From: Streptosporangium sp. NBC_01756
GTDB lineage: Bacteria > Actinomycetota > Actinomycetes > Streptosporangiales > Streptosporangiaceae
Length of the DNA stretch: 64,000 nucleotides
Reading direction: 5' to 3'
NCBI RefSeq assembly: GCF_035917975.1
Contig: NZ_CP109130.1
Coordinates: 1,116,001-1,180,000, forward strand
Shown: positions 14,862 through 44,024 of the stretch, one piece after another
Position numbering within the stretch: the stretch's first letter is position 1
Layout: the number at the start of each line of letters is the position of its first letter
Translations under genes and position numbers: made by a program
Notes under the pieces: generated by a model
Database searches by the model: none
Told to the model about the DNA's origin: nothing
The model's input: only the letters and a program-made list of their open reading frames with translations

Positions 14862-16121
14862 TCAGAGGCGCTCGACGTTGGCTCCCCGGCAGCGGTCACG
14901 TGTGTCGAAGACGAAGGGGCTCACCCGCTGGACCATCTCGTAGTCGAAGCAGTCGTGGTCGGTCAGAATCACGACCGCGTCCGCCTGCGACAGCTCGCAG
15001 GCCGTCGGCTGGACGAGCTCGATCCCCTGCGGCGGCATCAACGCGTTCACGTGGGGATCGGCGGCCAGCACGTCGGCACCCAGCTTACGCAGGGCCTTGG
15101 CCACCTCGATGGCGGGCGACTCGCGGCAGTCTCCGGCGTTCTTCTTGTAGGCGAGGCCGAGCAGGAACACCCGGCTGCCCCTGACCGCCTTGCGCCGCCG
15201 GTTCAGGCCGAGGATCAGCCGATGCACGACATGGTCCGGCATGTGGTCGTTGATGTCGTTGGCCAACTCCACGAACCGGAAGTTGTGCCCCAGGCTGCGT
15301 TTCACCTTCCATGACAGATAGGACGGATCGATCGGCAGGCAGTGCCCGCCGACTCCTGGGCCGGGGGTGAAGCGCATATATCCGAACGGTTTGGTGGAGG
15401 CGGCGTCGATCGCTTCCCAGACATCGATCCCCAGCTGCTGAGCGAAGATCGACAGCTCGTTCACCAGGGCGATGTTGACATGCCGGAAGGTGTTCTCCAA
15501 GAGCTTGCACAGCTCGGCGACCTGCATCGACGAGACCGGGACGACGTCGCGCACGATGCGTCCGTAGAACTCGCGGGTCCTTTCCAGAGATGCCCCGTCG
15601 AGCCCGGAGACGACCTTCGGCGTGTTCTCCAGATGCCATCGGGGGTTGCCCGGGTCGATCCGTTCCGGGCTGTAGCCCAGAAAGAAGTCCTCCGGCGTGC
15701 ACAGCCCCGAGCCCTCCTCCAGCAGCGGCCGGAGATACTCCTCGGTGGTTCCGGGATAGGTGGTGGACTCCAGGATCACCGTGGCGCCCGGCCGTATCAA
15801 CGGAGCCAGCGACTCGCCGGCCGAGCCGATGTGGCGAAGGTCGGGAACACCCTCGCGCAGTGGCGTCGGCACCGTTATCACGCAGACGTCGAACCCCTCC
15901 GCGTCGGCGTAGTCGGTGCTGGCCAGGTAGCGGCCGGAACGGTGGGCGGCGGCCAGCAGGTCGTCGCCGACGTCCTCGACATAGGACTCGGCGGCGTTGA
16001 GCCGTTTGACCCGCCACTCGTCCAGATCGATCCCCACGACGTCGAACCCCGCGCCGACCGCGCGCATCGCCAGAGGCAGGCCGACGTAACCCTGGCCGAC
16101 GACGACCAGTTTCTCTCCCAT
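14862..16121 (-). CDS. UDP-N-acetylhexosamine 6-dehydrogenase (WecC/WbpA type)
   Basis: A 419-residue nucleotide-sugar dehydrogenase that oxidises C6 of a UDP-HexNAc to the uronic acid with two NAD+. The N-terminal Rossmann motif VVGQGYVGLPLA, the VPTPLREG segment, the ESTTYPGTT motif, KLLENTFRHVNIALVNE and the catalytic-Cys motif PGPGVGGHCLPIDP (Cys261) are all present. The sequence resembles the WbpA/WecC branch more than UDP-glucose dehydrogenases; whether the substrate is GlcNAc or ManNAc is not determined. GGAGG eight bases before ATG 16121 fixes the start. It opens the glycan locus. Confidence 0.9.
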   Translation of the reverse strand: MGEKLVVVGQGYVGLPLAMRAVGAGFDVVGIDLDEWRVKRLNAAESYVEDVGDDLLAAAHRSGRYLASTDYADAEGFDVCVITVPTPLREGVPDLRHIGSAGESLAPLIRPGATVILESTTYPGTTEEYLRPLLEEGSGLCTPEDFFLGYSPERIDPGNPRWHLENTPKVVSGLDGASLERTREFYGRIVRDVVPVSSMQVAELCKLLENTFRHVNIALVNELSIFAQQLGIDVWEAIDAASTKPFGYMRFTPGPGVGGHCLPIDPSYLSWKVKRSLGHNFRFVELANDINDHMPDHVVHRLILGLNRRRKAVRGSRVFLLGLAYKKNAGDCRESPAIEVAKALRKLGADVLAADPHVNALMPPQGIELVQPTACELSQADAVVILTDHDCFDYEMVQRVSPFVFDTRDRCRGANVERL

Positions 16122-16674
16122 GTCAGGACCTCCGTTACTTCGAGATGAGATACACCTTTGACTGTAGGAGCCCGTTGTTCTCACAACGCCGATTCAACGG
16201 CGAATCGGGCGTGTCGTCCTTGGCCTGCTCCGACGACACCGGAAAAGCGGATCGAGACAGCCGTCGGCAACACACCCTGACCGCTTTATCCAAAAAACCA
16301 ACTAATAGCGACTTTTTGCGATACCCCTATTATATTTAGGTATTTTGAAATTTGAAATAGGAAAAATAACGACAGGACGGTATATTCGCTGATCCGACCG
16401 GACCCGAGGGAGATGTTCGCGCATACGACCCGGCCCCGGCGAGGAGTACGCCATCTCGCCCGGCGAGGTGGCGGAGCGGCCCGAGGGCGGGCGGGACGGC
16501 GGGGTTCCTCGCGCCGGTCACCGCCCGAACCGGCTCGGCCGCCGAAAGGAAACCTGCGGGTCCGATCACCTCGCAAAAGCCGGATTCTTCGCGTCTCCGA
16601 GTTTTCCCAGATATTCCAATGGCATTACTGAAGGATCACGGGGCCGGGCGAGGCAACTACGTATCGTATCGGCC
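16122..16674. other. Intergenic region with AT-rich island
   Basis: About 550 bp between divergent genes. The segment 16280-16380 is strikingly AT-rich for this genome, with runs of A and T and TATTATATTT. CCTATT (16326-16331) and AATAGG (16356-16361) form an inverted repeat. It probably holds divergent promoters and could bind an Lsr2-type silencer. The remaining open frames lack family features. Confidence 0.5.
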
Positions 16675-17472
16675 ATGGGTATCCGTGCTGTCGTTCGCAA
16701 CGCTGTCCGCCCGGCCTATCTTCCGGTCATGACTCATAAAGTCTGGCTGCGAATGACAGTGGGGCACGAGCGAGAAAGGGTCGCAGCCACCAAGTGGGCG
16801 TCCGAACGGGCGGAGAGCGTCGACGAATGGGGAAGTCTCATCGACGCGACCCTCTGGAGAGAGAGCGTGCAGTTTGCGGGGTCCCTGTCCGAATCGGCAC
16901 AACCACAGGTTCGCAGGCTCGCCGCCGCAGGTGTGGATCTGGGAGGGCCGGGCGGTGTCGAGCTCCTCTACTTTCTCACCCGCGCCCTCCGCCCCATCGT
17001 GGCGGTGGAGACGGGGGTGGCCGCCGGCTGGTCCACCTCGGCGATTCTCGCGGCGATGCGGGCGAACGAGGCCGGCCATCTGTACTCGAGTGATTTTCCC
17101 TTCTTCCGCCTCCCCGACCCGGAGCGATATATCGGATGCGTCGTTCCCGAGGATCTCAAGGACTCATGGACCCTGCTCATCAAGGGGGACCGAAGAAATC
17201 TTGAGGAGATTCTCCCGCCGGGGCGCCAGGTGGGCCTCTTTCATTACGACTCCGACAAGACGAGAGACGGAAGGGAGTTCTTTCTTCGACGGTCGCGGTC
17301 CCACCTGGCCGAGAACCACGTCATTGTCATGGATGACATCCAGGACAACCTGGTCTTCCGGGAGTACGCGGAGGCGCAACCTCTCTTCCGCGTCTTCGCG
17401 TACATGGGAAAATACATCGGCATGACCGGGCCAGGTCTGATGACCATGGAAAAGAAGGGGCCTGTGGAATAG
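16675..17472 (+). CDS. Class I SAM-dependent methyltransferase (Methyltransf_24 type)
   Basis: A 265-residue protein with the SAM-binding signature VAVETGVAAGWSTSAILAAM near residues 121-140, then an acidic strand end (YSSDFPFF) and a later VGLFHYDSDKTRDGREFF motif, typical of the Methyltransf_24 / class I group that includes sugar and cephalosporin hydroxylase-like methyltransferases. It lies in the glycan locus and may methylate a sugar, which is inference. The start at ATG 16675 lacks a good Shine-Dalgarno; a TATCGT a few bases upstream could serve a leaderless transcript. A later ATG (16729) is possible. Confidence 0.75.
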   Translation: MGIRAVVRNAVRPAYLPVMTHKVWLRMTVGHERERVAATKWASERAESVDEWGSLIDATLWRESVQFAGSLSESAQPQVRRLAAAGVDLGGPGGVELLYFLTRALRPIVAVETGVAAGWSTSAILAAMRANEAGHLYSSDFPFFRLPDPERYIGCVVPEDLKDSWTLLIKGDRRNLEEILPPGRQVGLFHYDSDKTRDGREFFLRRSRSHLAENHVIVMDDIQDNLVFREYAEAQPLFRVFAYMGKYIGMTGPGLMTMEKKGPVE

Positions 17473-17952
17473 CGAAGGATTTTTCCGCGCCTCCGCGCCG
17501 GTTCGCGCCGCCATCGACATATATGAACAAAGCCGGTCGGCGCATGATCCCCGAGATATGAGCTCGGGCGAATTCTGCCCCTCCCGATGCGGCAACCTCT
17601 CCCGGAGAGACGGATTTCCATGGAATCGGGGAACCGTTTCGATGCTCACCGGCAGCCGTCACCGATGAATGCATTCCGGTGGCGCATCAAATGAAATTCG
17701 CCTTCATCGCACACGAGCTCACATATTCCACCGCTCGGAGCACGGTCGCCGGTACAGCACCATCGTGCCCCGCATCGTCAGCAGGAATATTCACATTATA
17801 TGTTCCGACGTTGGCCTCCCCTCTGTCCTATACGGAAAATCCGAAGAGCCGGGCAGATCCGGAGTGGAGATCCCAGGGGTTTTCCCACCGGTCTCCGACT
17901 GCCGACCGGGCCGTACGCCCATACAACAGAGATCAGCAAGGAGTTGTGTCGA
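17473..17952. other. Intergenic region
   Basis: About 480 bp upstream of the DUF3494 gene. A short open frame from ATG 17691 begins MKFAFIAHELTY, which resembles the start of a real protein, but it decays into low-complexity sequence and has no ribosome site. No convincing gene or hairpin is seen. Confidence 0.4.
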
Positions 17953-20148
17953 ATGTGCAGTTCCCAGAGCGATGCCGTTGACCAGACGGTCGGCAGAGCC
18001 GCGCCGGAAGAGCCGCGGTGTGCGGCGGTCGCGCCACCCTCGCCGGATCCGGCGGAGGCGTCTGGCCGCCGTGCGGAGTACCGGCGGGAGTTCATCGCAC
18101 CCGCGACCGGTGCCGGCCGCCGTCGCCCGCTCCGGCAGAGCGTCGGTCGCTCCCTGCTCAAAGGGTCCGTCGCCGTCGCCCTGGTAGCAGGCATGGTCGC
18201 CGCCGCCCCTGCGGGCATCGCCAGCGCGAAACCGGTGAGAGCGAGCGCGACGCCGGTGAGTCTCGGCGCCGCCGCGCCCTTCGGGGCGCTCGCCCAGACG
18301 GCGGTGAGCAACATGAACGAGACCTCGATCACCGGGGACCTCGGAGTGAGCCCGGGCTCCTCGGTGGTCGGATTCCCCCCCGGCACCGTGTCGGGGACCA
18401 TACACGCGAACGACGCCACCGCGGCGCAGGCCATGACCGACGCGGTCGCCGCCTACAACAACGCCGCCGGGCAGACGCCCGACGCCACCGTACCGGCCCA
18501 ACTGGGTGGGACGACCAAGGCTCCGGGGGTCTACAACTCCTCCACCGGAAGCTTCTCGATCAGCGGCACACTCACCCTCGACGCCCAGGGTGATCCCGAC
18601 GCCGTCTTCATCTTCCAGGCGTCCACCCTCACCACGGCGAACGTCAGCAACATCAACCTCCTGCGCGGCGCGCAGGCGGACAACGTCTTCTGGCAACTCA
18701 GCAACAACGCGACTCTGGGAACGTATTGCACGTTCCGGGGGAACGTGCTGACCCAGAACGCGGTCACGATCAACACCGGCGCCGCCATCTTCGGCCGTGT
18801 CTTCGCGCTCATCGGCACTATCAGCGCCCAGGGCACCGGCGGTATCCCCGCCACCCGCGTCACCGTGCCGAACGACCCGCCGACCACCACGACCCTGGTC
18901 TCCTCGCTCAACCCCGCCTGGCAGGGCGATCCGGTGACCTTCACCGCCACGGTCCAGGCGAACTCCGGCTCGGTCATCCCGGCCGGGGAAGTGGTCTTCA
19001 AGGACGGCTCCACCATCGTCCGCTCGACTTTCGTCAATCCTTCGGGCGTCGCCACGTTCACCACCGCGGGTCTCAGTCCGGGACAACACACGATCACCGC
19101 CGTCTATCTGGGCGGAGACACCTTCGACAACGAGGCTTTGATCCACTTTGCGCCGAGCACGTCACCCGCGCTGTCCCAGACCGTGTCGGACAGTCTGTGG
19201 AACAAGACAGCGATCCCGGCCACCGCGTCACAGCCCGACTCCCAGCCCGTCACGCTGGGGGTGAAGTTCAAGTCGTCGACGGCCGGCACCGCCACCGGGG
19301 TCCGCTTCTACAAGGGCCCCCAGAACACCGGAACCCATACCGGGAGCCTGTGGACCAGCAGCGGCCAACTCCTCACCAGCGTGACCTTCGCCAACGAGAC
19401 CCCGTCCGGATGGCAACAGGCGAACTTCGGAACACCCGTCGCGCTCACCGCCAACACCACCTACGTCATCTCGTACCACGCCCCGGCGGGGGCCTACTCC
19501 ACAACCCGCCCCTACTTCGCCACGCAGTACACCAACGGCCCCCTCACCGCCCTCTCCGACGGCGCGGGCGGCGGCAACGGCGTCTACACCTACGGCGCGA
19601 CCAGCACCTTCCCCACCGCCAGCTACCAGGCCACCAACTACTGGGTCGACGTGATATTCGCCCCGTCGGACAGTCTGTGGAACAAGACAGCGACCCCGGC
19701 CACCGCGTCACAGCCCGACTCCCAGCCCGTCACGCTGGGGGTGAAGTTCAACACGTCGACGGCCGGCACCGCCACCGGGGTCCGCTTCTACAAGGCCCCC
19801 CAGAACACCGGAACCCACACCGGGAGCCTGTGGACCAGCAGCGGCCAACACCTCACCACCGCGACCTTCGCCAACGAGACCCCGTCCGGATGGCAACAGG
19901 CGAACTTCGGAACACCCGTCGCGCTCACCGCCAACACCACCTACATCATCTCGTACCACGCCCCGGCGGGGGCCTACTCCACAACCCGCCCCTACTTCGC
20001 CACGCAGTACACCAACGGCCCCCTCACCGCCCTCTCCGACGGCGCGGGCGGCGGCAACGGCGTCTACACCTACGGCGCGACCAACACCTTCCCCACCACC
20101 AGCTACCAGGCCACCAACTACTGGGTCGACGTGATATTCCACAGCTAG
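17953..20148 (+). CDS. Exported ice-binding-fold (DUF3494) protein with two DUF4082 modules
   Basis: A 731-residue surface or secreted protein. An unusually long 70-residue N-region precedes a hydrophobic signal (residues 71-92). A DUF3494 ice-binding-like beta-solenoid spans about 102-302 (LGAAAPFGALAQTAVSN, TGDLGVSPG, AGAIF-like strands), an Ig-like domain about 310-395 (GDPVTFTATVQ, AGEVVFKDG), and two DUF4082 modules 412-571 and 572-731. The modules are near-identical at DNA level. The start is ATG 17953 with AAGGAG nine bases upstream. DUF3494 domains in actinomycetes are often adhesins or matrix proteins and not true antifreeze proteins; the role here is inferred as cell-surface. Confidence 0.85.
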   Translation: MCSSQSDAVDQTVGRAAPEEPRCAAVAPPSPDPAEASGRRAEYRREFIAPATGAGRRRPLRQSVGRSLLKGSVAVALVAGMVAAAPAGIASAKPVRASATPVSLGAAAPFGALAQTAVSNMNETSITGDLGVSPGSSVVGFPPGTVSGTIHANDATAAQAMTDAVAAYNNAAGQTPDATVPAQLGGTTKAPGVYNSSTGSFSISGTLTLDAQGDPDAVFIFQASTLTTANVSNINLLRGAQADNVFWQLSNNATLGTYCTFRGNVLTQNAVTINTGAAIFGRVFALIGTISAQGTGGIPATRVTVPNDPPTTTTLVSSLNPAWQGDPVTFTATVQANSGSVIPAGEVVFKDGSTIVRSTFVNPSGVATFTTAGLSPGQHTITAVYLGGDTFDNEALIHFAPSTSPALSQTVSDSLWNKTAIPATASQPDSQPVTLGVKFKSSTAGTATGVRFYKGPQNTGTHTGSLWTSSGQLLTSVTFANETPSGWQQANFGTPVALTANTTYVISYHAPAGAYSTTRPYFATQYTNGPLTALSDGAGGGNGVYTYGATSTFPTASYQATNYWVDVIFAPSDSLWNKTATPATASQPDSQPVTLGVKFNTSTAGTATGVRFYKAPQNTGTHTGSLWTSSGQHLTTATFANETPSGWQQANFGTPVALTANTTYIISYHAPAGAYSTTRPYFATQYTNGPLTALSDGAGGGNGVYTYGATNTFPTTSYQATNYWVDVIFHS
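19186..20145 (+). repeat. Two tandem 480-bp DUF4082 module repeats
   Basis: The copies 19186-19665 and 19666-20145 are in exact 480-bp register and differ at only a handful of bases, most of them silent or conservative. The same 160-residue module occurs three more times in the gene at 26265-30074. Confidence 0.95.
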
Positions 20149-20196
20149 CGTTCCAGTGGCCGTGCCCTCACGGAACGTTCCGAGTCGATGACAGTC

Positions 20197-20225
20197 CGCG
20201 TGCCGGTTCACGGAACCGGCACGCG
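20197..20225. terminator. Hairpin terminator after the DUF3494 gene
   Basis: A perfect 13-bp stem (20197-20209 with 20213-20225) and three-base loop, 49 bp past the stop. It has no U-tract. Confidence 0.7.
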
Positions 20226-20264
20226 AGTAGCGGAGCCGGACGCCTGGAGCCGGCGGGTGACATC

Positions 20265-20292
20265 GGCTCTCCGGGCACGGCACCGGAGAGCC
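20265..20292 (-). terminator. Hairpin terminator after rmlB
   Basis: A perfect 10-bp stem (20265-20274 with 20283-20292, eight-base loop) that starts eight bases past the rmlB stop on the minus strand. Confidence 0.65.
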
Positions 20293-20299
20293 CCAGGAC

Positions 20300-21277
20300 T
20301 CAGCCTGCCTGCCCCTTCAGCGGGCGCCACCAGTCTTGGTGATCGCGATACCACCGCACGACCTCGGCGAGCCCCTCGCTGATGTCCACCCGTGGTTCGT
20401 AGCCGATGGCCTGGATCTTGCCGCAGTCAAGGGAGTAACGGCGGTCGTGCCCGAGGCGGTCGGGCACGTGCTCGACCGCCTCCCACCCCGCGCCGACGGC
20501 CGCGAGCAGCCACCCGGTCAGCTCCCGGTTGGTCAGCTCGACGCCGCCGCCGATGTTGTACACCTCGCCCGGCGAGCCCTTCTCCAGCACGATCTGAATG
20601 GCCCGGCAGTGGTCGTCGACGTGCAGCCACTCCCGCACGTTGAGCCCGTCCCCGTAGAGGGGGACCTTCCCTCCGTCGAGCAGGTTGGTGGCGAAGAGCG
20701 GGATGAGCTTCTCGGGATATTGGTAGGGACCGTAGTTGTTGCAGCAGCGGGTCACCCGGACATCCAGACCGTGAGTCCGGTGATAGGCCCGGCAGATCAG
20801 GTCCCCTCCGGCTTTGGCCGCCGAGTAAGGGGAGTTGGGGAGCAGGGGCGCGCTCTCGCTCCAGGACCCTTGCGCGATCGACCCGTACACCTCGTCGGTG
20901 GAAACCTGGACGACTGTCCGGACACCGCCCTCGAGCGCCGCCTGAAGAAGCCGCTGGGTGCCCAGCACATTCGTCGTCACGAAGTCGCCGGCTCCCGCGA
21001 TGGACCGGTCGACGTGGGTCTCGGCCGCGAAGTTCACGATCACGTCGCACCCGGGGACGACTTCCCTGAGAAGCCGCTGGTCGGTGATGTCTCCCTGGAC
21101 GAACGTGTAGCCGAGGTGCCCTGCGAGGGGAGCGAGGTTACCCAGGTTCCCGGCGTAGGTGAGCTTGTCGAGAACGACGACACGGGCGTCCTCGTACCCC
21201 GGATACGAACCGAGCAGCAGGGAGCGCACATAGTGCGATCCGATGAATCCGGCGCCGCCGGTGACGAGGATTCTCAT
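20300..21277 (-). CDS. rmlB: dTDP-glucose 4,6-dehydratase
   Basis: A 325-residue extended SDR that converts dTDP-glucose to dTDP-4-keto-6-deoxyglucose. It shows TGGAGFIGSHYVR (NAD site), the RmlB-specific FAAETHVDRSI, VSTDEVYG with the active-site Asp-Glu pair, and the catalytic YSAAK. The ATG at 21277 overlaps the stop of rmlA by four bases (ATGA), so the two are coupled. No rmlC or rmlD accompanies them; with the WecE-type transaminase nearby, the likely product line is an amino-deoxyhexose and not rhamnose. Confidence 0.93.
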   Translation of the reverse strand: MRILVTGGAGFIGSHYVRSLLLGSYPGYEDARVVVLDKLTYAGNLGNLAPLAGHLGYTFVQGDITDQRLLREVVPGCDVIVNFAAETHVDRSIAGAGDFVTTNVLGTQRLLQAALEGGVRTVVQVSTDEVYGSIAQGSWSESAPLLPNSPYSAAKAGGDLICRAYHRTHGLDVRVTRCCNNYGPYQYPEKLIPLFATNLLDGGKVPLYGDGLNVREWLHVDDHCRAIQIVLEKGSPGEVYNIGGGVELTNRELTGWLLAAVGAGWEAVEHVPDRLGHDRRYSLDCGKIQAIGYEPRVDISEGLAEVVRWYRDHQDWWRPLKGQAG

Positions 21278-22341
21278 GAGCACACCCGTATCTTGCTGTG
21301 GTCGCCCACCATGAACTCATGGGTGTTGGGCATGTTTTCCGCGCTGCTCACCTCGACGTTGCGCCCGATCAGGGAGCGGGCGATGCGCGAGACGCCGTGG
21401 ACGGAGGAGTCGTCGAGCACTATCGAGTATTCGATCTCGGTCTTCTCCATCCGGCACCCCGAGCCGATCGAGGTGAAGGGGCCGACATAGGACGATATGA
21501 TCTTGGTGTCCGCCCCGATCACGATGGGTCCGCGGAGGATCGAGCCCTCCACCACCGCCCCCCGCTCCACGACGACCCGTCCGGTGATCTCACTCAGGCC
21601 ATCCACCATGCCCTTGACATCGGGCTCGATCTGCTCAAGGACGATGCGGTTGCACTCCAGCATGTCCTGCAGGCGTCCGGTGTCCTTCCAGTAGCCGCTG
21701 ACGAGATGGGAGTGGACACGGGCACCGTCGTCGATGAGCCACTTGACGGCGTCGGTGATCTCCAGCTCACCTCGCGCGGAGGGTGTGATCGCCCGGACCG
21801 CCTCGTGGATGGCCGGAGAGAAGATGTACACCCCGACGATCGCGAGATCGCTGCGCGGGCGCTCCGGCTTCTCCTCCAGTCCGAGGATCTCACCTCCCGG
21901 CCCGAGTTCGGCGACTCCGTAGAACTGCGGTTCGGCGACTCTGGTGAGCAGGATCTGGGCGTCGTGGCCGGCCCCGCGGAAGGCGTCCACCAGGTCGGTG
22001 ATCCCGCCCACCAGGAAATTGTCGCCCAGGTACATCACGAAGGGTTCGCCGGCGAGGAACTCCTCGGCGATCAGGACGCAGTGCGCCAGGCCCAGCGGGG
22101 CCTCCTGAGGAATGTAGGTGACGTCGATGCCGAATCTCGAGCCGTCTCCGACGGCCTGGCGGATCTCGTGGCCGGTGTCACCGACGACGATGCCCACGTC
22201 GGTGATGCCCGCGGCCCGGATCGCCTCAAGCCCGTAGTAGAGCACCGGCTTGTTGGCGACGGGGACCAGTTGCTTCGCCGAGGTATGGGTCAGCGGGCGC
22301 AGCCTCGTCCCCTTGCCGCCCGCCAGAACGAGTGCCTTCAC
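21274..22341 (-). CDS. rmlA: Glucose-1-phosphate thymidylyltransferase, long form
   Basis: A 355-residue enzyme making dTDP-glucose from dTTP and glucose-1-phosphate. The N-terminal signature LVLAGGKGTRLRPLTHT, the LGDNFL metal site and EKPERPRSDLA are present. The C-terminal 110 residues (RVVVERGAVVEGSILRGPIVIGADT) form a left-handed beta-helix, as in the StrD-like long RmlA proteins of actinomycetes. The start is GTG 22341; the 15 residues upstream in the open frame are not conserved. It is first in a two-gene operon with rmlB. Confidence 0.93.
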   Translation of the reverse strand: MKALVLAGGKGTRLRPLTHTSAKQLVPVANKPVLYYGLEAIRAAGITDVGIVVGDTGHEIRQAVGDGSRFGIDVTYIPQEAPLGLAHCVLIAEEFLAGEPFVMYLGDNFLVGGITDLVDAFRGAGHDAQILLTRVAEPQFYGVAELGPGGEILGLEEKPERPRSDLAIVGVYIFSPAIHEAVRAITPSARGELEITDAVKWLIDDGARVHSHLVSGYWKDTGRLQDMLECNRIVLEQIEPDVKGMVDGLSEITGRVVVERGAVVEGSILRGPIVIGADTKIISSYVGPFTSIGSGCRMEKTEIEYSIVLDDSSVHGVSRIARSLIGRNVEVSSAENMPNTHEFMVGDHSKIRVCS

Positions 22342-22474
22342 GCTCTCTGGATTCCTTCCGTGAAGAACGTATGGCCCAGCGACCACTTGCCCACCCGAAC
22401 TTATCCGGAAATCCGACCGGTTCCGCCTCGCCGCCCCACGCCTTTACCGAGTGACATGCGGGGTATTGCCGGTC

Positions 22475-22939
22475 TCACACGCTTCCCCGGTCGCGAAATG
22501 TCCACCTCCGGTGTATCGCATAGCTCAGCGGCGGACTCGCGATGATCACCAACGCCTGTGCCGCCATAATCGAAATTCCCATCAATTCCACAAAAATCGG
22601 AATTCCGATGACGGATGCCATCAGGAAGCTCATCCCGACTGCATAGAACCGTAGATAGCCCGCCAACCAGGATTCCCCGCGGACCCGGAAGACGATCAGC
22701 CGGTACCAGGGGTAGACGATCACCACGGTGATCAGATGGCTGGCCACGACCAGGAAAAGGTAGGGGACCGAATCCTCGGCGGCCAGTAATCCCAGGCCAA
22801 GAAGAGCGTAATGAACCGCGGCCGTCATGGCGCCGGCCAACAGATATGTGATGCGGTGACCACCAAGAGCCCAGATCGTGGCCCATGGCCCCGAATGCGA
22901 TTTCCCGCCGTGGGTTGTGCGCTTTTCGACTTCAACCAT
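22475..22939 (-). CDS. GtrA family membrane protein
   Basis: A 154-residue protein with four predicted membrane segments (about 30-50, 60-80, 95-115, 122-142) and the GtrA-like C-terminus SYAIHRRWTFRD. GtrA proteins flip polyprenyl-phosphate-linked single sugars across the membrane. It is divergent from a GtrB-like GT2 starting at 23019, the classical partner. The start at ATG 22939 gives a basic cytoplasmic N-terminus of about 25 residues. Confidence 0.88.
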   Translation of the reverse strand: MVEVEKRTTHGGKSHSGPWATIWALGGHRITYLLAGAMTAAVHYALLGLGLLAAEDSVPYLFLVVASHLITVVIVYPWYRLIVFRVRGESWLAGYLRFYAVGMSFLMASVIGIPIFVELMGISIMAAQALVIIASPPLSYAIHRRWTFRDRGSV

Positions 22940-23018
22940 GCGGCGGTCACTCCGGATCGTGGTCGGGCGGCGGGATAGACAGGATTGTAATCGGCTAAAG
23001 ATAATAATCGGGGGATTG

Positions 23019-24014
23019 ATGTCAGTGTCGGTGGTTATTCCGTGTTACCGTTCCGCACGGACGCTTCCGACATTGGTGGCCAGGCTCATGCCGGTCCTCC
23101 GTGACCTCTCCGTCCGGCACGAGGTCATCCTCGTCGTCGACGGAAGCCCGGACGACACCTGGGAGACGGCCGTCGAGCTGGCCCACCGATTCGTGGGCGT
23201 CCGCGCGATCCACCTGTCCCGCAACTACGGCCAGCACAACGCGCTGGTCGCCGGCATCAGGGAGGCGGGATGCGAGGTCGTCGTCACGATGGACGACGAC
23301 CTGCAGCACCCGCCGGAGCAGATCCCCCTGCTGCTGGCCACGCTTGAGGGCGACCGCCTCGACCTGGTGTACGGCGTTCCGCACAGCGAGGAGCACGGGT
23401 TCCTCCGGAACGTCGCATCCCAATTGGTGAAGGCGGGCATGGCAGGCGGCCTGGGTATCCGCACCGCCCGGACGATCAGCGCCTTCCGCGCCTTCCGGAC
23501 GTGTCTCCGCGACGGGTTCGAGGGCCTGTCCGGGCCGCACGCGTCGATCGACGTGGCCCTGTCCTGGTCCACGACGAAGGTCGGTTCGGTCAGGGTGCAC
23601 ATGATCGAGCGCGCCCAGGGCCGGTCCAACTACACACCGCGCCTGCTGGTCCGGCACGCGTTGAACATGCTTCTCGGCTACAGCGCGACTCCCCTGCGGA
23701 TGGCGAGCTGGCTGGGATTCCTCACCGGTGTCTTCGGTCTGCTGCTGGGCGGCACGGTTCTGTGGCGTTTCGCCGCGGGCGACACCACGGTCGCCGGGTT
23801 CACCACCATCGCCTCGATGGTCGCGCTCTTCTCGTCCGCTCAGCTGATATCCATCGGGGTTCTCGGTGAGTACGTCGGCCGCATCCACGGAAGCGGAATG
23901 GGACGACCGACCTACGTGGTACGGGAGCGGGCCGGTTCGCCCGCCCTCCGGCCGTTCGACGGTCCTAGCGTTCCCGCGGGCACGAGAGCCGGTTCCGCAT
24001 CAGGTGAACAGTGA
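23019..24014 (+). CDS. GT2 polyprenyl-phosphate glycosyltransferase (GtrB/ArnC-like)
   Basis: A 331-residue GT-A enzyme. The N-terminal VSVVIPCYRSARTL, VILVVDGSPDDT and the DDDLQHPP metal motif (about residues 92-99) are typical of dolichyl/undecaprenyl-phosphate sugar synthases. Two C-terminal membrane helices (about 228-250 and 265-285) match the GtrB/DPM1 architecture. It would transfer a sugar from a nucleotide donor to polyprenyl phosphate for GtrA to flip. The start at ATG 23019 fits the family, though only a short purine run lies before it. Confidence 0.9.
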   Translation: MSVSVVIPCYRSARTLPTLVARLMPVLRDLSVRHEVILVVDGSPDDTWETAVELAHRFVGVRAIHLSRNYGQHNALVAGIREAGCEVVVTMDDDLQHPPEQIPLLLATLEGDRLDLVYGVPHSEEHGFLRNVASQLVKAGMAGGLGIRTARTISAFRAFRTCLRDGFEGLSGPHASIDVALSWSTTKVGSVRVHMIERAQGRSNYTPRLLVRHALNMLLGYSATPLRMASWLGFLTGVFGLLLGGTVLWRFAAGDTTVAGFTTIASMVALFSSAQLISIGVLGEYVGRIHGSGMGRPTYVVRERAGSPALRPFDGPSVPAGTRAGSASGEQ

Positions 24015-24756
24015 GAACGGCCTGTACGGGTTCGAACCCGTACCTGGCCCACGCTCTCTGCACTCGCGTATTGTGCGCTTGGGTGGAGATGACGATCTCG
24101 GTCGCGCCGCGGGCCAGCGTGCGCTCCTCGACCGCCTTGAGCAGGTAGGCGTAGAGACCGCGCCCCTGCGCTCCGGAGACGATCCCGGCGAGGAGGATCT
24201 CCGTCCGGGAATCGCCCTCCTCCAGCGTCGCCAGCCCGAGCACGTCGTCCACGCCGGCCCCGCGCAACGCCCCCCGCAGTGCGAGGCACCGCCCCTCGGC
24301 GGCGGACCTCAGCGCCCACTCCCGGTAGCCCGCCAGCGCGCCGCCGACGTCGAACAGGGGGTTGGCCATGTAGTGGTTCCCGTAAGCGGCGAAGATGTCG
24401 GAGACCGACGCCCGCACCTCGGCCGGGTCGACCGGCTCCGCCGTCCGCAGATCCGGCGACCACTCGGGCGCGTGCCCCTTTCCTGCGGGCAGGCGCCAGT
24501 ACACCAGGCAGTCGGCGAACACGGCTGTCCGGCCGAGCGTGGTCAGTTCCGCGAACCAGCCGACGTTCTCAGCCGGGTAGCGCAGCACGACGACGTCGGC
24601 GGCCGACCCCAGAACGGCCTCACGGACCACCGGGAACGGGGATCCCGCCGCCGCCGACACGGTCAGCCGCTCGACGGAACACCCGAATCGGGCGGATTCG
24701 AGTGGGGACTCCCGAGCCCGTACGGCTCCCGACTCCATCACGTCGTACCAGCCCAT
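23965..24756 (-). CDS. GNAT N-acetyltransferase, WecD-like
   Basis: A 263-residue protein whose C-terminal GNAT fold is visible as GLATLEEGDSRTEILLAGIVSGAQGRGLYAYLLKA (acetyl-CoA loop near residue 207) and NTRVQRAWARYGFEPVQ. Its first ~120 residues form a second divided domain, as in WecD, the dTDP-4-amino-4,6-dideoxygalactose N-acetyltransferase. The ATG at 24756 shares a base with the stop of the WecE-type gene (TGATG), so they are translationally coupled. That pairing supports a role in acetylating the WecE product. Its 3' end overlaps the convergent GT2 gene by 50 bp. Confidence 0.75.
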   Translation of the reverse strand: MGWYDVMESGAVRARESPLESARFGCSVERLTVSAAAGSPFPVVREAVLGSAADVVVLRYPAENVGWFAELTTLGRTAVFADCLVYWRLPAGKGHAPEWSPDLRTAEPVDPAEVRASVSDIFAAYGNHYMANPLFDVGGALAGYREWALRSAAEGRCLALRGALRGAGVDDVLGLATLEEGDSRTEILLAGIVSGAQGRGLYAYLLKAVEERTLARGATEIVISTQAHNTRVQRAWARYGFEPVQAVLTVHLMRNRLSCPRER

Positions 24757-25910
24757 CAGCGCACCCCGTAGGTCCGGGTCGCGTCGATCACGCGCGCCGT
24801 GTCCGCGTCGTCCATGTCGGGAAAGAGGGGCAGCCGTACCAGGCGGTCGGCGGCCCTCTCCGTGACCGGGCAGCCACCCGGAGCCGCCCGCCCGTATCGC
24901 AGGCCCGCGGGCGCGGCATGCAGCGGCTGGTAGTGGAACACCGCCTGCACGCCCCGGTCGGCCAGATGACCGATGAACGCCTGGCGGTTCTCCGGGTCCG
25001 GGAACAGCAGATGGTACAGGTGCGCCGGGTGGTCGCAGCCCTCCGGAAGCACCGGCTGGGAGATCCCGTTCTCCGCGGCCCAGTCCCCCAGTTCCTCGTG
25101 ATACCTGTGCCACACGGCGTGCCGCCGGGACTGAATCGTGCCGAACGACTCCAGCTGAGCGGTCAGCTGAGCGGCGAGGACATCGGAGAGCAGGTAGCTG
25201 GAGCCGATGTCGACCCAGCGGTACTTGTCGACCTGTCCGCGGTAGAACCGGCTGCGGTCGGTGCCCTTCTCCCTGATGATCTCGGCGCGGCCGATCAGGG
25301 CGGCATCGTTCAGGAGTAGCGCGCCCCCCTCTCCGCACTGCACGTTCTTGGTCGCGTGGAAGCTCTGGGCCGCCATCCGGCCGAACGACCCGAGAGGCCG
25401 ACCCCGATACGACCCGCCCAGGCCGTGGGCGTTGTCCTCGATGAGCGTGAGGCCACGCCGCTCGCAGAGCTCCCCGATCGCCTCCATCTCGCAGGCGACA
25501 CCCGCGTAGTGGACGACCACGACGGCCCGCGTCCGGTCGGTGACCGCCGCTTCGAGCAGCCGTTCGTCCACGTTGAGCGTGTCGGGCCTGCAGTCGGCGA
25601 ACACGGGCACCGCCCCGCGCAGGGCATAGGCGTTGGCCGTCGAGACGAAGGTGAACGACGGCATGATGACCTCGTCGCCCGGCTGCAGGCCGAGCAGCAA
25701 CGCCGACATCTCCAGCGCGTGAGTGCAGGAACTGGTCAGCAGCGCCTCCTTCGCCCCGGTCGTCTCCTTCAGCAGTCCGGTGGCCCGCCGGGTGAAAGGC
25801 CCGTCTCCGCAGGTGAATCCCTGACGCACCGCCTCGGTGAGGTAGCCGAGCTCGTTACCGGAGACATGTGTCCGGTTGAACGGGATGCTTTTCAGAAAGG
25901 TTGCGCTCAC
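24756..25910 (-). CDS. wecE: dTDP-4-keto-6-deoxyglucose C4 transaminase (WecE/RffA type)
   Basis: A 384-residue PLP enzyme of the DegT/DnrJ/EryC1 family, and strongly WecE-like: IPFNRTHVSGNELGY, the FTCGDGPFTRR segment, GDEVIMPSFTFVSTANA, VHYAGVACEME, FHATKNVQCGEGGA (PLP-binding Lys), IREKGTDRSRFYRGQVDKY and FHYQPLH all follow the enterobacterial enzyme closely. It would make dTDP-4-amino-4,6-dideoxygalactose from the RmlB product. The start is uncertain: GTG 25910 gives a length near that of E. coli WecE (376); an in-frame GTG at 25964 is alternative. Confidence 0.9.
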   Translation of the reverse strand: MSATFLKSIPFNRTHVSGNELGYLTEAVRQGFTCGDGPFTRRATGLLKETTGAKEALLTSSCTHALEMSALLLGLQPGDEVIMPSFTFVSTANAYALRGAVPVFADCRPDTLNVDERLLEAAVTDRTRAVVVVHYAGVACEMEAIGELCERRGLTLIEDNAHGLGGSYRGRPLGSFGRMAAQSFHATKNVQCGEGGALLLNDAALIGRAEIIREKGTDRSRFYRGQVDKYRWVDIGSSYLLSDVLAAQLTAQLESFGTIQSRRHAVWHRYHEELGDWAAENGISQPVLPEGCDHPAHLYHLLFPDPENRQAFIGHLADRGVQAVFHYQPLHAAPAGLRYGRAAPGGCPVTERAADRLVRLPLFPDMDDADTARVIDATRTYGVR

Positions 25911-26264
25911 GGCCGCAGTGAACAACGGACGGGCCGGCCGACACGCGTTGCGGTGTCTTTCCACGGCGAACCGTTACGCAAGCCTTACGACGCCCAGCGG
26001 CCGATGACGATCACGACCGCCGTGATCGTTCACCTTCCCGGAATCCCGCGAAGCGAGCAGGCTTCCACCAAAAATGATCTCCTGATGCAAGAACGGCCCC
26101 GGAATCCGTCCTACCGGGGTATCGCCGTCTCTCTGGGTGATACTGGCTTGAAATCAGATCTTGTCGCTTTTCCCCTGCTCCTGGTGTTCCCCCGTTCGGT
26201 GGAACCTGCCAACGAGTTGCGACCAGAGGTCGCGCACACCACAGGCGAGAAAAGGACGAGTGCG
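25911..26264. other. Divergent promoter region
   Basis: About 350 bp between the transaminase and the large secreted protein. It contains a CCCCGG/CCGGGG hairpin (26097-26119) and sequence of lower GC than its surroundings around 26060-26180. No gene is supported. Confidence 0.4.
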
Positions 26265-29200
26265 ATGCAACGGCAGAGGCTTCCGATAGTGGTGTTCGCC
26301 CTCGGCGTCTGCATCATGCTCCTGATCGGCGCGTCACCGGCTGCCTGGGGGCTGGCATCCGTCCCGCGTGCCGATCCGGGCGGTCCGACGGACACGAAGG
26401 CCGCCGGCGAGAGCCGGACGGCCCCGGGCCAACCGGAGAACCTTCCCGGCCCGAAGGACGCCGCTCCTCCGGAGGTCGTCCTCCTCCCGGAAGACGCCTC
26501 CGGTCCCGACCCCGCCTCGCCGGACACGCACGGCTCCGAAGAGGCCTCCACCCCGCCGGACGCCCCGTCCACCGGAGGCGTCACCACCCCGCCGAGCCTG
26601 CCCGGCTCGCCCCGGCCGGCCGACGGCTCAAGCCCGGAAGGCATCAACCCCGTGGAAGCGGATCCGACGCCGTCAGCAGCCCCGGAGCGGCGCCCGGTTC
26701 AACCCCCTCGCTCCTCCGCCGATGTGACGGGCCCCGGGAAGAACGCAGACCACCCGACGGCGGGCGTCGGCAGGGGGGCGAAGAGGACGGCCGGAGCCGC
26801 CCGGATCCGTGCCCTCCGCGCCGACTGCCCACCCACCTCCGTCATCTGCCTGGAGAACAGCCTGCCCGGCAACCCTCCCAGCGAATGGGACATACCGGGG
26901 GCGGGCAGCAGCGGCATCCAGGGCTACGGAACCACCATGAGCGTCAACAAGGGCGGGACCATCCAGTTCAAGGTGGACACCGACTCGACCGATTACCGGG
27001 TGGACATCTACCGCACGGGATACTACGGCGGGATGGGCGCGCGGAAGATGACGACGATCAGCCCGTCCGTCCCGCTGCCCCAGACGCAGCCGGACTGCCT
27101 GAGCGACCCGGTGACCCAACTGGTGGACTGCGGAACCTGGGCGGTTTCCGCTTCCTGGGCGGTACCGGCCGACGCCGTCTCCGGTGTGTACCTCGCGAAC
27201 CTGATCCGGCAGGACGGAACGGACGGCGCCAGCCAGATGATATTCGTGGTCCGCGACGACGAGCGCGGATCGGATCTCCTCGTGCAGACCTCCGACGCCA
27301 CCTGGCAGGCCTACAACACCTACGGCGGGGCCAGCCTGTATCGCGGCAACGGCCAGCAGGGACGTGGTTTCAAGGTGAGCTACAACCGCCCGTTCACCAC
27401 ACGTGGCAGCACCTGTTGCAACGGCTCGGTGGAGAGCTGGTTCTTCGACTCCGAATATCCGATGGTCAGATGGATGGAGGCCAACGGATACGACGTGAGC
27501 TACACCACGAACATCGACACCACGGCGCGGCCGGCGGAACTGCTCGAACACCGGCTGTTCATCTCCTCCGGCCATGACGAGTACTGGTCGGAGGAGATGC
27601 GGACGAATGTCCAGAACGCGCTGAGCGGCGGCGTCAACCTCGCCTTCTTCTCCGGGAACGAGGTCTTCTGGAAGACCAGGTGGGAGAGCAGCATCGACGG
27701 GTCGGCCACTCCGCTGCGGACACTCGTCTGCTACAAGGAGACGCTGGCCAACGCCAAGATCGATCCGAGTCCGCAGTGGACCGGTTCGTGGCGTGATCCG
27801 CGTTTCTCCCCGCCGTCGAACGGCGGCAGGCCCGAGAACGCCCTGACCGGGACGTGGTTCAGAGTCAACGGCGTCGCCAACAACTCGCTCAGCGTTCCCG
27901 CCGAGTTCGGCGACCTGCGGCTGTGGCGCAACACCTCCATCGCCACCCTTCCACCCGGTCAGACCGCGGTGTTCCCCGCGGGGACACTCGGCTACGAATG
28001 GGACCAGGCACCTGACAACGGTTCCGCGCCCGCCGGACTGGTGAAGCTCTCCAGGACGATCCAGAGCGTTCCGGCCTTCCTGCTCGACTTCGGCAGCACG
28101 TACGGACCCAGGATCGCGACGCACAATCTGACGCTTTACAAGGCCGCGAGCGGCGCCCTTGTCTTCGGTGCGGGAACCACGCAGTGGGCATGGGGACTCG
28201 ACGCCTTCCACGATCGGCCGGGGTCGCCCACGGATGTCCGGATGCAGCAGGCGACGGTCAATCTCTTCGCCGACATGCATGCGCAGCCGGCCAGTCTCCA
28301 GCCGAACCTGGTTCCGGCGACCGCGTCGACGGACACCGCCGCCCCGACGTCAACGATCACCAACCCGCTGGACGACGCGTCCCTGTCCGCGAAAGTGGCT
28401 GTCACGATCAAGGGAACGGCGACCGACACCGGCGGTGGCGTCGTCGCGGGCATCGAGGTCTCGGTCGACGGCGGCACCTCCTGGCACCCGGCGGCGGGGC
28501 GCACCGACTGGCAGTATCGCTGGACGCCCACCGCAGCCGGAACCGCGACGATCCAGGTCCGAGCGGTCGACGACATCGGCAACATCCAGAATCCGCCGAC
28601 CGCCGTCACCGTCACCGTCACCTCGTGCCCCTGCACCATGTGGCCGGCGACCACCGTGCCCGCCGCCACCTCGCACTGGGATCCCAAGGCGGTCGAAGGC
28701 GGGGTGAAATTCCGGTCCGCGAGTCCGGGCTTCATCACGGGGGTCAGGTTCTACAAGGGAGCGCTCAACACGGGGACGCACGTCGGCAATCTCTGGACCT
28801 CCACCGGACAGCTCCTGGCAGGGGCGACATTCATCAACGAGACGGACAGCGGTTGGCAACAGGTGAACTTCTCCGCACCCGTCCCGATCGACGCCGGCAC
28901 CACCTACGTCGCCTCCTACCACACGACCTCGGGCTTCTACTCGATAACCAGACCGTACTTCACGACTCCGCACACCAGCGGCCCGCTCACCGCACTCGCC
29001 AACGGCACGGAAGGCGGCAACGGCGTATACACCTACAGCCCCACGAGCGCCTTCCCCACCAGCACCTACCAGGCCACCAACTACTGGGTCGACGTCGTGT
29101 TCGAACCGTCGAACAGCCTGTGGGACAACACGGACCTCCCGGACGTCCCCTCCAGCAACGACGCCCAGGCCATCACGGTGGGCGTGAAGTTCAGCTCGGC

Positions 29201-36456: not shown

Positions 36457-36930
36457 CCTGCACTCGCTCTCTCGGTCGACGGGGTTCCGATCCCGGCCTG
36501 CGGATGCGTTGGTTCTTCCGTCGGCCACGCGTGGGATCGGTGCTCTCCGACCGCGCGGCGCGGCATCCCCGTTCGAGATGCCGCGGCTCTCCAAAGGAGC
36601 ATGCCATCGGCGGCACGGTCTTCTCGGTCACCTGCCGGTCCGGCAGACATTAGTGGCCGAGCGCGAGAAAACCCACCGCATTCAACAGGGAACGATCAAT
36701 CCTGACTCCGGCTTTGCCGGCAATTGGCAGGCAAAACCCACGCCGGCCAGGCCGCGAACGACGTTGTCCCGACGTGGCGCCGTGAAGTGCCGCCGGCCTC
36801 ACCCTGGCCGGATATATCGGCCATGCCAGTCCAAGATCGTAGAAGACCGACATTAATGATGGAGTCATGACTTTAAAATATTCTGCAGGCACGGAGCGCC
36901 GCCGCTATTTCCCGCTTCCCACTCGGGAAG
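36457..36930. other. Divergent promoter region
   Basis: About 470 bp between a minus-strand membrane enzyme and the plus-strand glycosyltransferase operon. Near 36855-36885 the sequence turns AT-rich: a 10-bp palindrome AGTCATGACT (36863-36872) is followed by TTTAAAATATT, a plausible -10 region about 50 bp before the start at 36931. Confidence 0.45.
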
Positions 36931-40500: not shown

Positions 40501-40502
40501 TC

Positions 40503-43078: not shown

Positions 43079-44024
43079 TCCATTTCCACTGCTGGCCCAT
43101 GCCTTCGGCCAGTGACGTCGACGGCTCGTAGCCGAGCAGCTTCCGCGCCCTGGTCAGGTCGGCCTCCGTGGTGTCCACGTCGCCCAGCTGTGTCACGTCA
43201 CGGAGAATCGGGACGTCCTGACCGGTCACCTGGGCGGCACATGCCAGCACGTCCAGCATGGAGACGCTGCGGCCACCGCCGACGTTGACCACCTCGGCCT
43301 GAGCGGGAGCCACGCAGGCGGCCATCGTGGCCGCGACCGCATCGCCGACATAGGTGAAGTCCCGACGCTGGACGCCATCGCCGTACAGGCGGAGCGGGTG
43401 ACCGGTGAGCACGGACCGGAGTATCCGGCCGATGGCCATGTCCGGTCGCTGCCGAGGACCGTAGACGGTGAAGTATCTCAGGGCCACCACACTCAACGGG
43501 GTGTCCCGCCTGACCGCGTAGGCGAGCGAGAGCCGCTCCGCGGCCAGCTTCGTGACCCCGTACGGCGAGAGCGGGAAAGGAAGGTCTTCTTCGCGTGAGG
43601 GGCGGCCGACGCTGTTCCCGTACACGCTCGACGACGAGGCGAGGACCATCCTGGGCACGTCCGTGGAAACGCACGCCTCAAGCAGGCGCTGGGTCACCAT
43701 GACGTTCGACGCCAGATATTCCGCGAATCGCTCCCCCCACGAGGGCCGGACACCGGGAACACCCGCGAGGTGGAAGACAGCCGAAGCACCTTCCGTCAAC
43801 GACCTCAGATCCAGCTCCCCCAGCTCCCCCTCGACCAGGTGAAAGCCACGCCGGCCCAGGAGGCTCTCGAGGTTTTCGGCTGCCACCGGGTCGCCCGCCG
43901 GAGAGCGCCGGTCTATCCCGACCACATTCGCTCCCTGGAGCAACAACGCCTCGGCCAGGTGTGACCCGATGAAGCCGGCCACCCCCGTCACGACTGCCCG
44001 CTCCACTTGTTGCATGCCACTCAC
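43068..44024 (-). CDS. NAD-dependent epimerase/dehydratase
   Basis: A 318-residue extended SDR with TGVAGFIGSHLAEALL (NAD site), VFHLAGVPGVRPSW, ASSSSVYGN and the catalytic YGVTK. Together with RRDFTYVGDAVAA this is the pattern of UDP-glucuronate or UDP-glucose 4-epimerases; the exact sugar is open. The start is GTG 44024 behind GGGGA; the ATG at 44015 is possible. It forms a minus-strand stretch with the GT4 and methyltransferase genes upstream, but with gaps that allow separate promoters. Confidence 0.85.
   Translation of the reverse strand: MSGMQQVERAVVTGVAGFIGSHLAEALLLQGANVVGIDRRSPAGDPVAAENLESLLGRRGFHLVEGELGELDLRSLTEGASAVFHLAGVPGVRPSWGERFAEYLASNVMVTQRLLEACVSTDVPRMVLASSSSVYGNSVGRPSREEDLPFPLSPYGVTKLAAERLSLAYAVRRDTPLSVVALRYFTVYGPRQRPDMAIGRILRSVLTGHPLRLYGDGVQRRDFTYVGDAVAATMAACVAPAQAEVVNVGGGRSVSMLDVLACAAQVTGQDVPILRDVTQLGDVDTTEADLTRARKLLGYEPSTSLAEGMGQQWKWITS

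What the first reader, a model, noticed from the sequence alone, without database searches (positions are those of the whole stretch)
14862..25910. Enterobacterial common antigen-like sugar set in an actinomycete glycan locus
One locus encodes a WecC/WbpA-type UDP-HexNAc dehydrogenase, RmlA, RmlB, a strongly WecE-like C4 transaminase and, coupled to it, a WecD-like acetyltransferase, with no RmlC or RmlD. These are the enzymes for dTDP-Fuc4NAc and a UDP-HexNAc uronate. Fuc4NAc-type sugars are best known from Gram-negative surface glycans; finding the set next to Wzx/Wzy machinery suggests an uncharacterised actinomycete polymer with both sugars.
Basis: partly seen in the sequence, partly recalled or inferred. 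Interest (0 to 1): 0.75.

Follow-up and report, generated by a model that had tools for sequence, protein, structure and literature searches.

The report
Lipid-linked Fuc4NAc module in actinomycetes
This bacterium carries the enzymes for a rare amino sugar best known from a coat molecule of gut bacteria, but the genes around them suggest that it hangs the sugar on a membrane lipid, flips it outside and attaches it to its surface by a different route.

Summary
In detail: a transaminase of WecE rank (above both curated cut-offs, 52% identical to E. coli WecE, in the WecE clade away from C3 enzymes), RmlA, RmlB and an overlapping acetyltransferase whose modelled fold is closest in the PDB to WecD. 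The ECA-like polymer reading is only partly supported: no WecB, WecF, WecG or WzyE match in the window, and the dehydrogenase's substrate is open. In 100 family genomes WecE is in 18, GT2 in 16, both in 15, within 8 kb each time, five of them without the polymer-cluster marker; 0 of 15 control DegT loci have such a GT2. WecE relatives in several phyla lie beside the same kind of GT2; 11 Enterobacterales ECA loci do not. The GT2 type follows the acylation cassette. Best explanation: a dTDP-Fuc4NAc-type sugar is moved onto polyprenyl phosphate, flipped by GtrA and transferred outside by a new GT-C family, as in Arn/Gtr systems. Product, C4 stereochemistry and acceptor are untested.

The parts
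24756..25964 (-). WecE: dTDP-4-keto-6-deoxyhexose C4 aminotransferase (start uncertain, 25964 or 25910)
   Evidence: TIGR02379 486 bits (cut-off 435), NF008687 525 (375); WecE clade 100/100
23965..24756 (-). WecD-like GNAT N-acetyltransferase, overlapping the wecE stop by one base
   Evidence: model pLDDT 82.5; best PDB match 2FS5 WecD, E 1.5e-12, Z 18.8, rmsd 3.1 over 207; only 26 bits to the WecD model
22998..24014 (+). GT2 polyprenyl-phosphate sugar transferase, ArnC/GtrB type, DDD motif, two C-terminal TM helices (longest frame starts 22878; end overlaps the GNAT end by 50 b)
   Evidence: best PDB match ArnC E 1.2e-38, then sll0501 (GtrB by recall); PRK10714 150 bits, under its cut-off of 529; TM helices; motif
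22475..22939 (-). GtrA-family flippase
   Evidence: PF04138 47.4 bits, cut-off 26.1
21274..22386 (-). RmlA, long form
   Evidence: TIGR01208 446 bits, cut-off 320
20300..21283 (-). RmlB, overlapping rmlA
   Evidence: TIGR01181 411 bits, cut-off 365
32313..34748 (+). Membrane protein of GT-C-like fold, family without Pfam model; Asp198 (codon 32904-32906), invariant in 8 rows, in the loop after the first core helix
   Evidence: 10 TM; VIA-align rows 1-34 GT-C enzymes, Z 16.5-7.2; no Pfam match for the window protein; alignment; model only pLDDT 60.7
34828..36594 (-). Second multi-TM protein, GT39-like by eye, not part of the conserved module
   Evidence: 7 TM; no family match; in 0 of 20 family loci
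14862..16184 (-). Nucleotide-sugar dehydrogenase of the UDP-HexNAc class, substrate open
   Evidence: TIGR03026; nearest PDB UDP-ManNAc DH, Cap5O, GalNAcA DH, CalS8; in 10 of 20 family loci and, for G012 and G002, in the next 20 kb
17953..20148 (+). Secreted ice-binding (DUF3494) + Big + DUF4082 protein
   Evidence: start by eye
26265..30074 (+). Secreted DMFA2_C + Big + DUF4082 protein, signal peptide by eye
   Evidence: start
40464..52168 (.). Polysaccharide cluster: Wzx-like (unverified), Wzy, SDRs, GTs, WecA-like GT4 49759-50799, Wzz/kinase 50804-52168
   Evidence: Wzz, WecA-like and SDR48 in 11 of 11 genus genomes fetched on that side

Best explanation
A sugar-decoration module of the multi-component transmembrane (Arn/Gtr-like) kind. 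RmlA and RmlB make dTDP-4-keto-6-deoxyglucose; the WecE-type transaminase puts an amine on C4; the WecD-like enzyme acetylates it, giving dTDP-Fuc4NAc or its C4 epimer. The ArnC-like GT2 then moves this sugar onto polyprenyl phosphate; GtrA flips the lipid-linked sugar; the GT-C protein 32313-34748 passes it, outside the membrane, to an acceptor, most likely the polysaccharide made by the neighbouring Wzx/Wzy/Wzz cluster or another wall polymer. Shown: the gene families, folds, order and co-occurrence. Inferred: every reaction, the lipid carrier, the C4 stereochemistry and the acceptor.
For: WecE rank and tree. WecD fold. GT2 nearest to ArnC, whose substrate is a 4-formamido sugar. GtrA. GT-C-like fold. 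In 100 family genomes WecE 18 (E 1e-100), GT2 16 (1e-60), both 15, gaps under 8 kb (Fisher 5e-14, not corrected for kinship); GT-C (1e-40) 21, with WecE in 14, gaps under 16 kb (6e-9). Control: ArnC-like GT2 in 0 of 15 loci of other DegT genes, 8 of the family and 7 of other families, against 18 of 20 WecE loci of the family plus a fragment in L042, whose whole copy is in L173. Of the best 80 genome-contig loci, full-length GT2 in 44 of 69 non-ECA loci (31 within 3 kb) and 0 of 11 Enterobacterales ECA loci. The GT2 falls into two clades: the 8 family loci of one all carry another GNAT (F7) plus WbqC; the WecD-like gene occurs only with the other clade (window and 9 loci), never with F7 or WbqC; one genus has both kinds, while WecE is 78-80% and 75-82% (L042 90%) like the window's in the two sets. 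GT2 thus seems to read the acylated product. In G011 RmlB, RmlA, GtrA, GT2 and GT-C lie together elsewhere in the locus. WecE with GT2 but without the polymer-cluster marker SDR48 in G029, G190, G095, G296, G383.
Against: GT2, GtrA and RmlA also occur without WecE in G010 and G036, so GT2 may not be specific for an amino sugar. Three WecE-positive family genomes (G365, G278, G111) have no such GT2 and four no GT-C (only part of the candidates was scored per genome). Other DegT genes can also have an ArnC-like GT2: L043, L064 and L142, not in the control. The WecD-like gene is in only 8 of 20 family loci, and 5 of the 15 rows of its GT2 clade lack it. Six of 17 GT2 matches hold one stop codon; in the one looked at (L062 = G127) the match runs a few codons past the frame. 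The GT-C model is weak (pLDDT 60.7; Foldseek TM 0.21-0.38 by query). GT2 is far below the ArnC equivalog cut-off. In the genus all 11 WecE genomes fetched on that side keep the polymer cluster, so use in the backbone is not excluded.
Confidence: 0.66

Rival explanations
1. ECA-like heteropolymer: the Fuc4NAc-type sugar and a UDP-HexNAc uronate are built into a Wzx/Wzy repeat unit on Und-PP by cytoplasmic transferases of the cluster.
For: Wzz, a WecA-like GT4, a Wzy and five group-1 glycosyltransferases lie 11-26 kb away. In the genus, Wzz, WecA-like and SDR48 are in 11 of 11 WecE genomes fetched on that side; the Wzx-like gene in 6 of the 11, the Wzy in 1. The dehydrogenase is in 10 of 13 genus WecE genomes (8 in the 20 first loci, and G012, G002) and both Microbispora.
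Against: No WecB, WecF, WecG, WzxE, WzyE match in the window; WecB family 3.36 Mb away; five genomes have WecE and GT2 without the marker SDR48; dehydrogenase hit in only 3 of 80 genome-contig loci, and it is also kept where WecE is missing (G010, G036, G390); it leaves GT2, GtrA and GT-C unexplained.
Confidence: 0.19
2. The module glycosylates secreted proteins (for example the neighbouring DUF4082 proteins) rather than a polysaccharide.
For: DUF4082 matches in 13 of 20 family loci and, for G002, in the next 20 kb (L180); the GT-C model is closest to protein oligosaccharyltransferases and ArnT; the proteins look Thr/Ser-rich by eye.
Against: L055 to L058 have WecE and GT2 without DUF4082 in the stretches read (for L055, L056 and L058 also none in the next 20 kb on one side); fold likeness does not show the acceptor.
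Confidence: 0.1
3. A secondary-metabolite sugar pathway, as in calicheamicin (CalS8, CalS13).
For: CalS8 is among the nearest solved dehydrogenases; one relative (G278, L061) has an EryCIII-like glycosyltransferase about 5 kb from WecE.
Against: CalS13 scores 111 bits on the WecE profile against 636 for WecE; no EryCIII-like transferase among the window proteins scanned; WecE in 13 of 15 same-genus relatives.
Confidence: 0.05

Closest known systems
Enterobacterial common antigen cluster (wecA-wecG, rffG, rffH)
   Same: RmlA, RmlB, WecE orthologue, WecD-fold acetyltransferase; a WecC-class dehydrogenase and WecA/Wzz-type proteins in the same region
   Different: No WecB, WecF, WecG, WzxE, WzyE match in the window; instead GtrA, ArnC-like GT2 and GT-C; RmlA is the long form
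Arn pathway (ArnB-ArnC-ArnT, Und-P-Ara4N on lipid A; recalled)
   Same: 4-amino sugar, polyprenyl-phosphate GT2, GT-C final transferase
   Different: dTDP instead of UDP route; WecE-clade, not ArnB-clade transaminase; acetyl instead of transient formyl (inferred); GtrA flippase; no lipid A expected in an actinomycete
Gram-positive multi-component transmembrane glycosylation systems (CsbB/GtcA/YfhO, GtlA/GtcA/GtlB)
   Same: GT-A + GtrA + GT-C layout (PMC8035078, passages read)
   Different: Sugars seen in those passages are Gal, GlcNAc and Glc; here a dTDP-4-amino-4,6-dideoxyhexose is predicted; the window GT-C has no Pfam match
Calicheamicin sugar genes (CalS8, CalS13)
   Same: dTDP-4-keto sugar amination in an actinomycete (recalled)
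   Different: CalS13 is a distant relative

Membership tests
WecE (TIGR02379 / NF008687) | Score above the curated cut-offs | tested here: met
   486 vs 435 and 525 vs 375 bits
WecE (TIGR02379 / NF008687) | Groups with E. coli WecE and not with C3 enzymes or ArnB | tested here: met
   100/100 branch; C3 set QdtB, DesV, WlaRG; 32 rows. The output warns that the WecE and ArnB branches are long.
WecE (TIGR02379 / NF008687) | Makes axial 4-amine (Fuc4N) | not testable with these tools
   The two NCBIfam titles even differ (glucose / galactose)
WecD | Curated WecD score | tested here: not met
   26 vs 219 bits and 24 vs 195
WecD | WecD fold as nearest structure | tested here: met
   rank 1, E 1.5e-12, TM 0.77 by target; Z 18.8 against 16.0 for the next. 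Two of the five rows behind the model were found by likeness to E. coli WecD.
ECA biosynthesis cluster | WecE, RmlA, RmlB present | tested here: met
ECA biosynthesis cluster | WecB in the locus (UDP-ManNAc supply) | tested here: not met
   no match in window; single PF02350 gene at 4.54 Mb
ECA biosynthesis cluster | WecC equivalog | tested here: not met
   232 vs 459 bits; 34% to E. coli WecC
ECA biosynthesis cluster | WecF, WecG, WzxE, WzyE | tested here: not met
   no tblastn match at 1e-3 in the window; sequence-diverse families, so function may be replaced
Multi-component transmembrane glycosylation (GtrA/GtrB/GT-C) | Polyprenyl-phosphate GT2 with C-terminal TM pair | tested here: met
   by similarity and predicted helices
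Multi-component transmembrane glycosylation (GtrA/GtrB/GT-C) | GtrA-family flippase | tested here: met
   PF04138 47.4 bits
Multi-component transmembrane glycosylation (GtrA/GtrB/GT-C) | GT-C transferase | tested here: inconclusive
   clear by structural comparison (Z to 16.5) but from a model of pLDDT 60.7 with low Foldseek TM-scores
Multi-component transmembrane glycosylation (GtrA/GtrB/GT-C) | Lipid-linked sugar and surface transfer | not testable with these tools
   needs biochemistry
Arn pathway | ArnB-clade UDP-Ara4N transaminase | tested here: not met
   229 vs 631 bits; separate clade

The most novel reading that the evidence does not exclude
Polyprenyl-phosphate-linked N-acyl 4-amino-4,6-dideoxyhexose is a widespread, undescribed glycan donor: outside Enterobacterales the usual partner of WecE is not a Wzx/Wzy polymer line but an ArnC-like GT2 that selects the acyl group, and in Actinomycetota the sugar is handed on by a new GT-C family. 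ECA would then be the special case and an Arn-like decoration route the common one.
Probability: 0.5. Interest if true: 0.75.

Novelty: new variant of a known kind. Interest (0 to 1): 0.58.

Why it matters
A census of 12,939 genomes (PMC7725333, passages read) states that the Fuc4NAc pathway is found only in Gammaproteobacteria. Here a WecE above its curated cut-offs with a WecD-fold partner sits in an actinomycete, and the same transaminase family occurs in many phyla, often beside a lipid-carrier transferase. If right, it gives a testable route for amino-deoxysugar decoration of Gram-positive walls, a new GT-C family with a probable donor, and a case where acylation genes and transferase change together. 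Actinomycete wall glycans are poorly known (PMC11481543, passages read).

Tried and rejected
C3-aminotransferase reading of the transaminase: rejected by tree and family scores. ArnB and CalS13 membership: rejected. Sequence-only WecD membership of the GNAT: failed, rescued only at fold level. Idea that the closest relative G011 had lost RmlA, RmlB and GtrA: wrong, they lie further along the contig next to GT2 and the GT-C. Strict WecE dependence of the GT2: rejected, G010 and G036 have GT2 without WecE. Sequence and family searches for the GT-C: nothing useful. tRNA and Rfam families in the window: none found. Literature: no paper on an actinomycete Fuc4NAc lipid donor among the listings of searches (open-licence PMC library; listings of 63, 89 and 90 were capped at 15 of 46, 8 of 218,643 and 12 of 2,671). 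Passages were read in PMC7725333, PMC11481543, PMC8035078 and PMC12826051 only. The paper on WecE versus CalS13 stereochemistry is recalled, not seen. The genus is unnamed; the family is Streptosporangiaceae by inference from named relatives at 74-78% and a contig of equal length in G127 and Microbispora catharanthi.

Rows dropped before counts: one search set aside GT2 hits under 250 aa (47 loci became 44); I picked the 11 ECA loci by their run of wec genes. The test (19 of 20) counts the L042 fragment. One search left L042 (fragment), L061 (no GT2), L062 (same genome as L059) and L063 out and used L173 for G011. RmlA in 19 of 20 includes L061 at 39%. Control loci were my choice from the lists. 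In some searches only 18, 10 and 21 candidates per genome at most were scored, so absences are lower-bound statements; E-value limits differ between the three. Co-occurrence tests are not corrected for kinship. Flank searches cover 20-40 kb around WecE, not whole genomes. After the recount (dehydrogenase and polymer cluster are well kept in the genus) I lowered the best explanation from 0.68 to 0.66 and raised the ECA-like rival from 0.17 to 0.19.


Full report
What is there. The window is G000:C1:1116001-1180000 of a 9.0 Mb single-contig genome. Named relatives place the family as Streptosporangiaceae. Gene content was read from ORFs, Pfam and NCBIfam. On the minus strand run rmlB (20300-21283), rmlA (21274-22386) and gtrA (22475-22939); divergent from them is the GT2 (22998-24014, +), which converges on the pair GNAT (23965-24756) and wecE (24756-25964), both minus. 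The wecE stop and the GNAT start share a base. The GT-C gene (32313-34748, +) lies 6 kb on. The dehydrogenase (14862-16184), a methyltransferase (16468-17472) and two secreted DUF4082 proteins flank the set; a polysaccharide cluster with Wzy, WecA-like GT4 and Wzz follows to 52168.

The sugar. The transaminase passes the curated cut-offs of both WecE models and matches solved WecE at 409 bits, against 188 for the next family, ArnB. In a 32-row tree it sits with WecE (100/100), apart from the C3 enzymes QdtB, DesV and WlaRG and from ArnB. The GNAT fails the WecD sequence models (26 vs 219 bits), and E. coli WecD finds it only at E 0.002, but its model (pLDDT 82.5, five rows) has E. coli WecD as the first match among 350,542 PDB chains (E 1.5e-12; Z 18.8 over 207 residues, next row 16.0). 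The gene order GT2, WecD-like, WecE recurs in L071 and L077. So dTDP-4-acetamido-4,6-dideoxyhexose is the likely product; galacto or gluco form is open.

The dehydrogenase. It is of the UDP-HexNAc class by nearest solved structures (UDP-ManNAc DH 218 bits, Cap5O 201, GalNAcA DH 189, CalS8 184, UDP-glucose DH 124), but below each listed equivalog cut-off. It is in 10 of 20 family loci, and for G012 and G002 in the next 20 kb, so it is kept in 10 of 13 genus genomes with WecE; it is also kept in G010, G036 and G390, where WecE was not found nearby. Outside, it is in 3 of 80 genome-contig loci. It goes with the polymer cluster rather than with WecE.

What travels with WecE. In 20 family loci (the window not counted) GT2 is found in 19 (18 whole, one fragment in L042), RmlA in 19, RmlB and GtrA in 17, the GT-C in 15, DUF4082 in 13, the WecD-like GNAT in 8. 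In 100 family genomes WecE is in 18, GT2 in 16 and both in 15, with gaps under 8 kb; the GT-C is in 21 and shared in 14. WecE without GT2: G365, G278, G111; GT2 without WecE: G036. In the genus, own genome plus 15 relatives, WecE is in 14 and GT2 in 15; G010 has GT2 only and G013 neither. Control: 15 loci of other DegT genes (8 of the family, 7 of other families) have no ArnC-like GT2 within about 10 kb. Outside the control, a second DegT type does have one (L043, L064, L142; below). Beyond the family, 44 of 69 non-ECA genome-contig loci have a full-length GT2 of this kind, in Verrucomicrobiota, Cyanobacteriota, Chloroflexota, Acidobacteriota and others, some directly adjacent (L067, L070, L075, L080); 0 of 11 Enterobacterales ECA loci have one.

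How it probably works. GT2 is nearest to ArnC, then sll0501 and dolichol-phosphate mannose synthase. GtrA is a curated match. The GT-C protein has no family match, but rows 1 to 34 of its structural comparison are GT-C enzymes or complexes that hold one (oligosaccharyltransferases, ArnT bound to undecaprenyl phosphate, AftA/B/D, EmbA, DPY19, Pmt4, ALG; Z 16.5 to 7.2; unrelated rows at most 6.3; that one translocon chain is STT3 is recalled). The first nine Foldseek rows are of the same kind, with low TM-scores. The aligned part begins near model residue 157, and Asp198, invariant in 8 rows, follows the first core helix, where GT-C enzymes carry their catalytic acid (recalled). The model is weak (pLDDT 60.7), so this is a fold call, not an activity.

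Coupling of GT2 to acylation. The GT2 tree has two clades. All 8 family loci of one clade (GT2 55-58% like the window's) carry another GNAT, F7, and a WbqC protein; neither was found with the other clade. The WecD-like gene was found in the window and 9 loci, all with the other clade (75-82%) and never beside F7 or WbqC. Five of the 15 rows of that clade lack the WecD-like gene. One genus has both kinds, while WecE is 78-80% and 75-82% (L042 90%) like the window's in the two sets. This suggests that GT2 reads the acyl group. Second, L043, L064 and L142 hold another DegT beside another ArnC-like GT2 and the same GT-C family; two of these DegT proteins join the C3 set in the tree and the third is 83% identical to one of them: a parallel amino-sugar module.

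Against. G010 keeps RmlB, RmlA, GtrA, GT2 and two GT-C genes but no WecE, and G036 is similar; so the lipid-linking part can serve another 6-deoxyhexose, and WecE/WecD looks like an exchangeable cassette. Eleven of the 19 loci with GT2 lack the WecD-like gene; eight of them have F7 and WbqC. All 11 genus genomes fetched on that side keep Wzz, WecA-like and SDR48, so a role in the backbone is not excluded; five genomes of other genera have WecE and GT2 without the marker SDR48.

Compared with the known. It is not an ECA locus: WecB, WecF, WecG, WzxE and WzyE give no match. It works like the Arn pathway and like the Gram-positive multi-component systems reviewed in PMC8035078 (passages), with a donor not seen in the passages read there. 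PMC7725333 (passages) confines Fuc4NAc to Gammaproteobacteria; the present data argue that this needs a second look, with the caveat that no product has been measured.

Noticed in passing
17953-20148 and 26265-30074: Two secreted proteins with DUF4082 domains (one with an ice-binding DUF3494 domain, one with a dimethylformamidase-like domain) flank the module; DUF4082 matches in 13 of 20 family loci. Role unknown; possible binders or targets of the glycan.
   Followed up: partly
L043:8036-10268, L064:14600-16688, L142:12352-14419: A second module: DegT transaminase (C3-like in the tree for L043 and L142) next to another ArnC-like GT2 and copies of the same GT-C family.
   Followed up: partly
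L047:13433-14149, also L048, L049, L051, L053, L054, L059, L060: WbqC-like protein (PF08889 tested on L047) in all eight loci with the second GT2 type, always together with GNAT F7; may be the amide-forming step of another N-acyl sugar.
   Followed up: partly
L182 (G010): Module with RmlB, RmlA, GtrA, GT2 and two GT-C genes but no WecE; an aldo/keto-reductase-like ORF (by eye) lies beside GT2.
   Followed up: partly
34828-36594: Multi-TM protein with an RGDE...HPPL stretch that looks like a GT39 enzyme (by eye), but no family match and no relative in the 20 family loci.
   Followed up: partly
52951-54714 and 61529-62665: DUF4012 protein next to Wzz, seen with the polymer cluster in the genus; an AurF-like oxygenase further on.
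   Followed up: no
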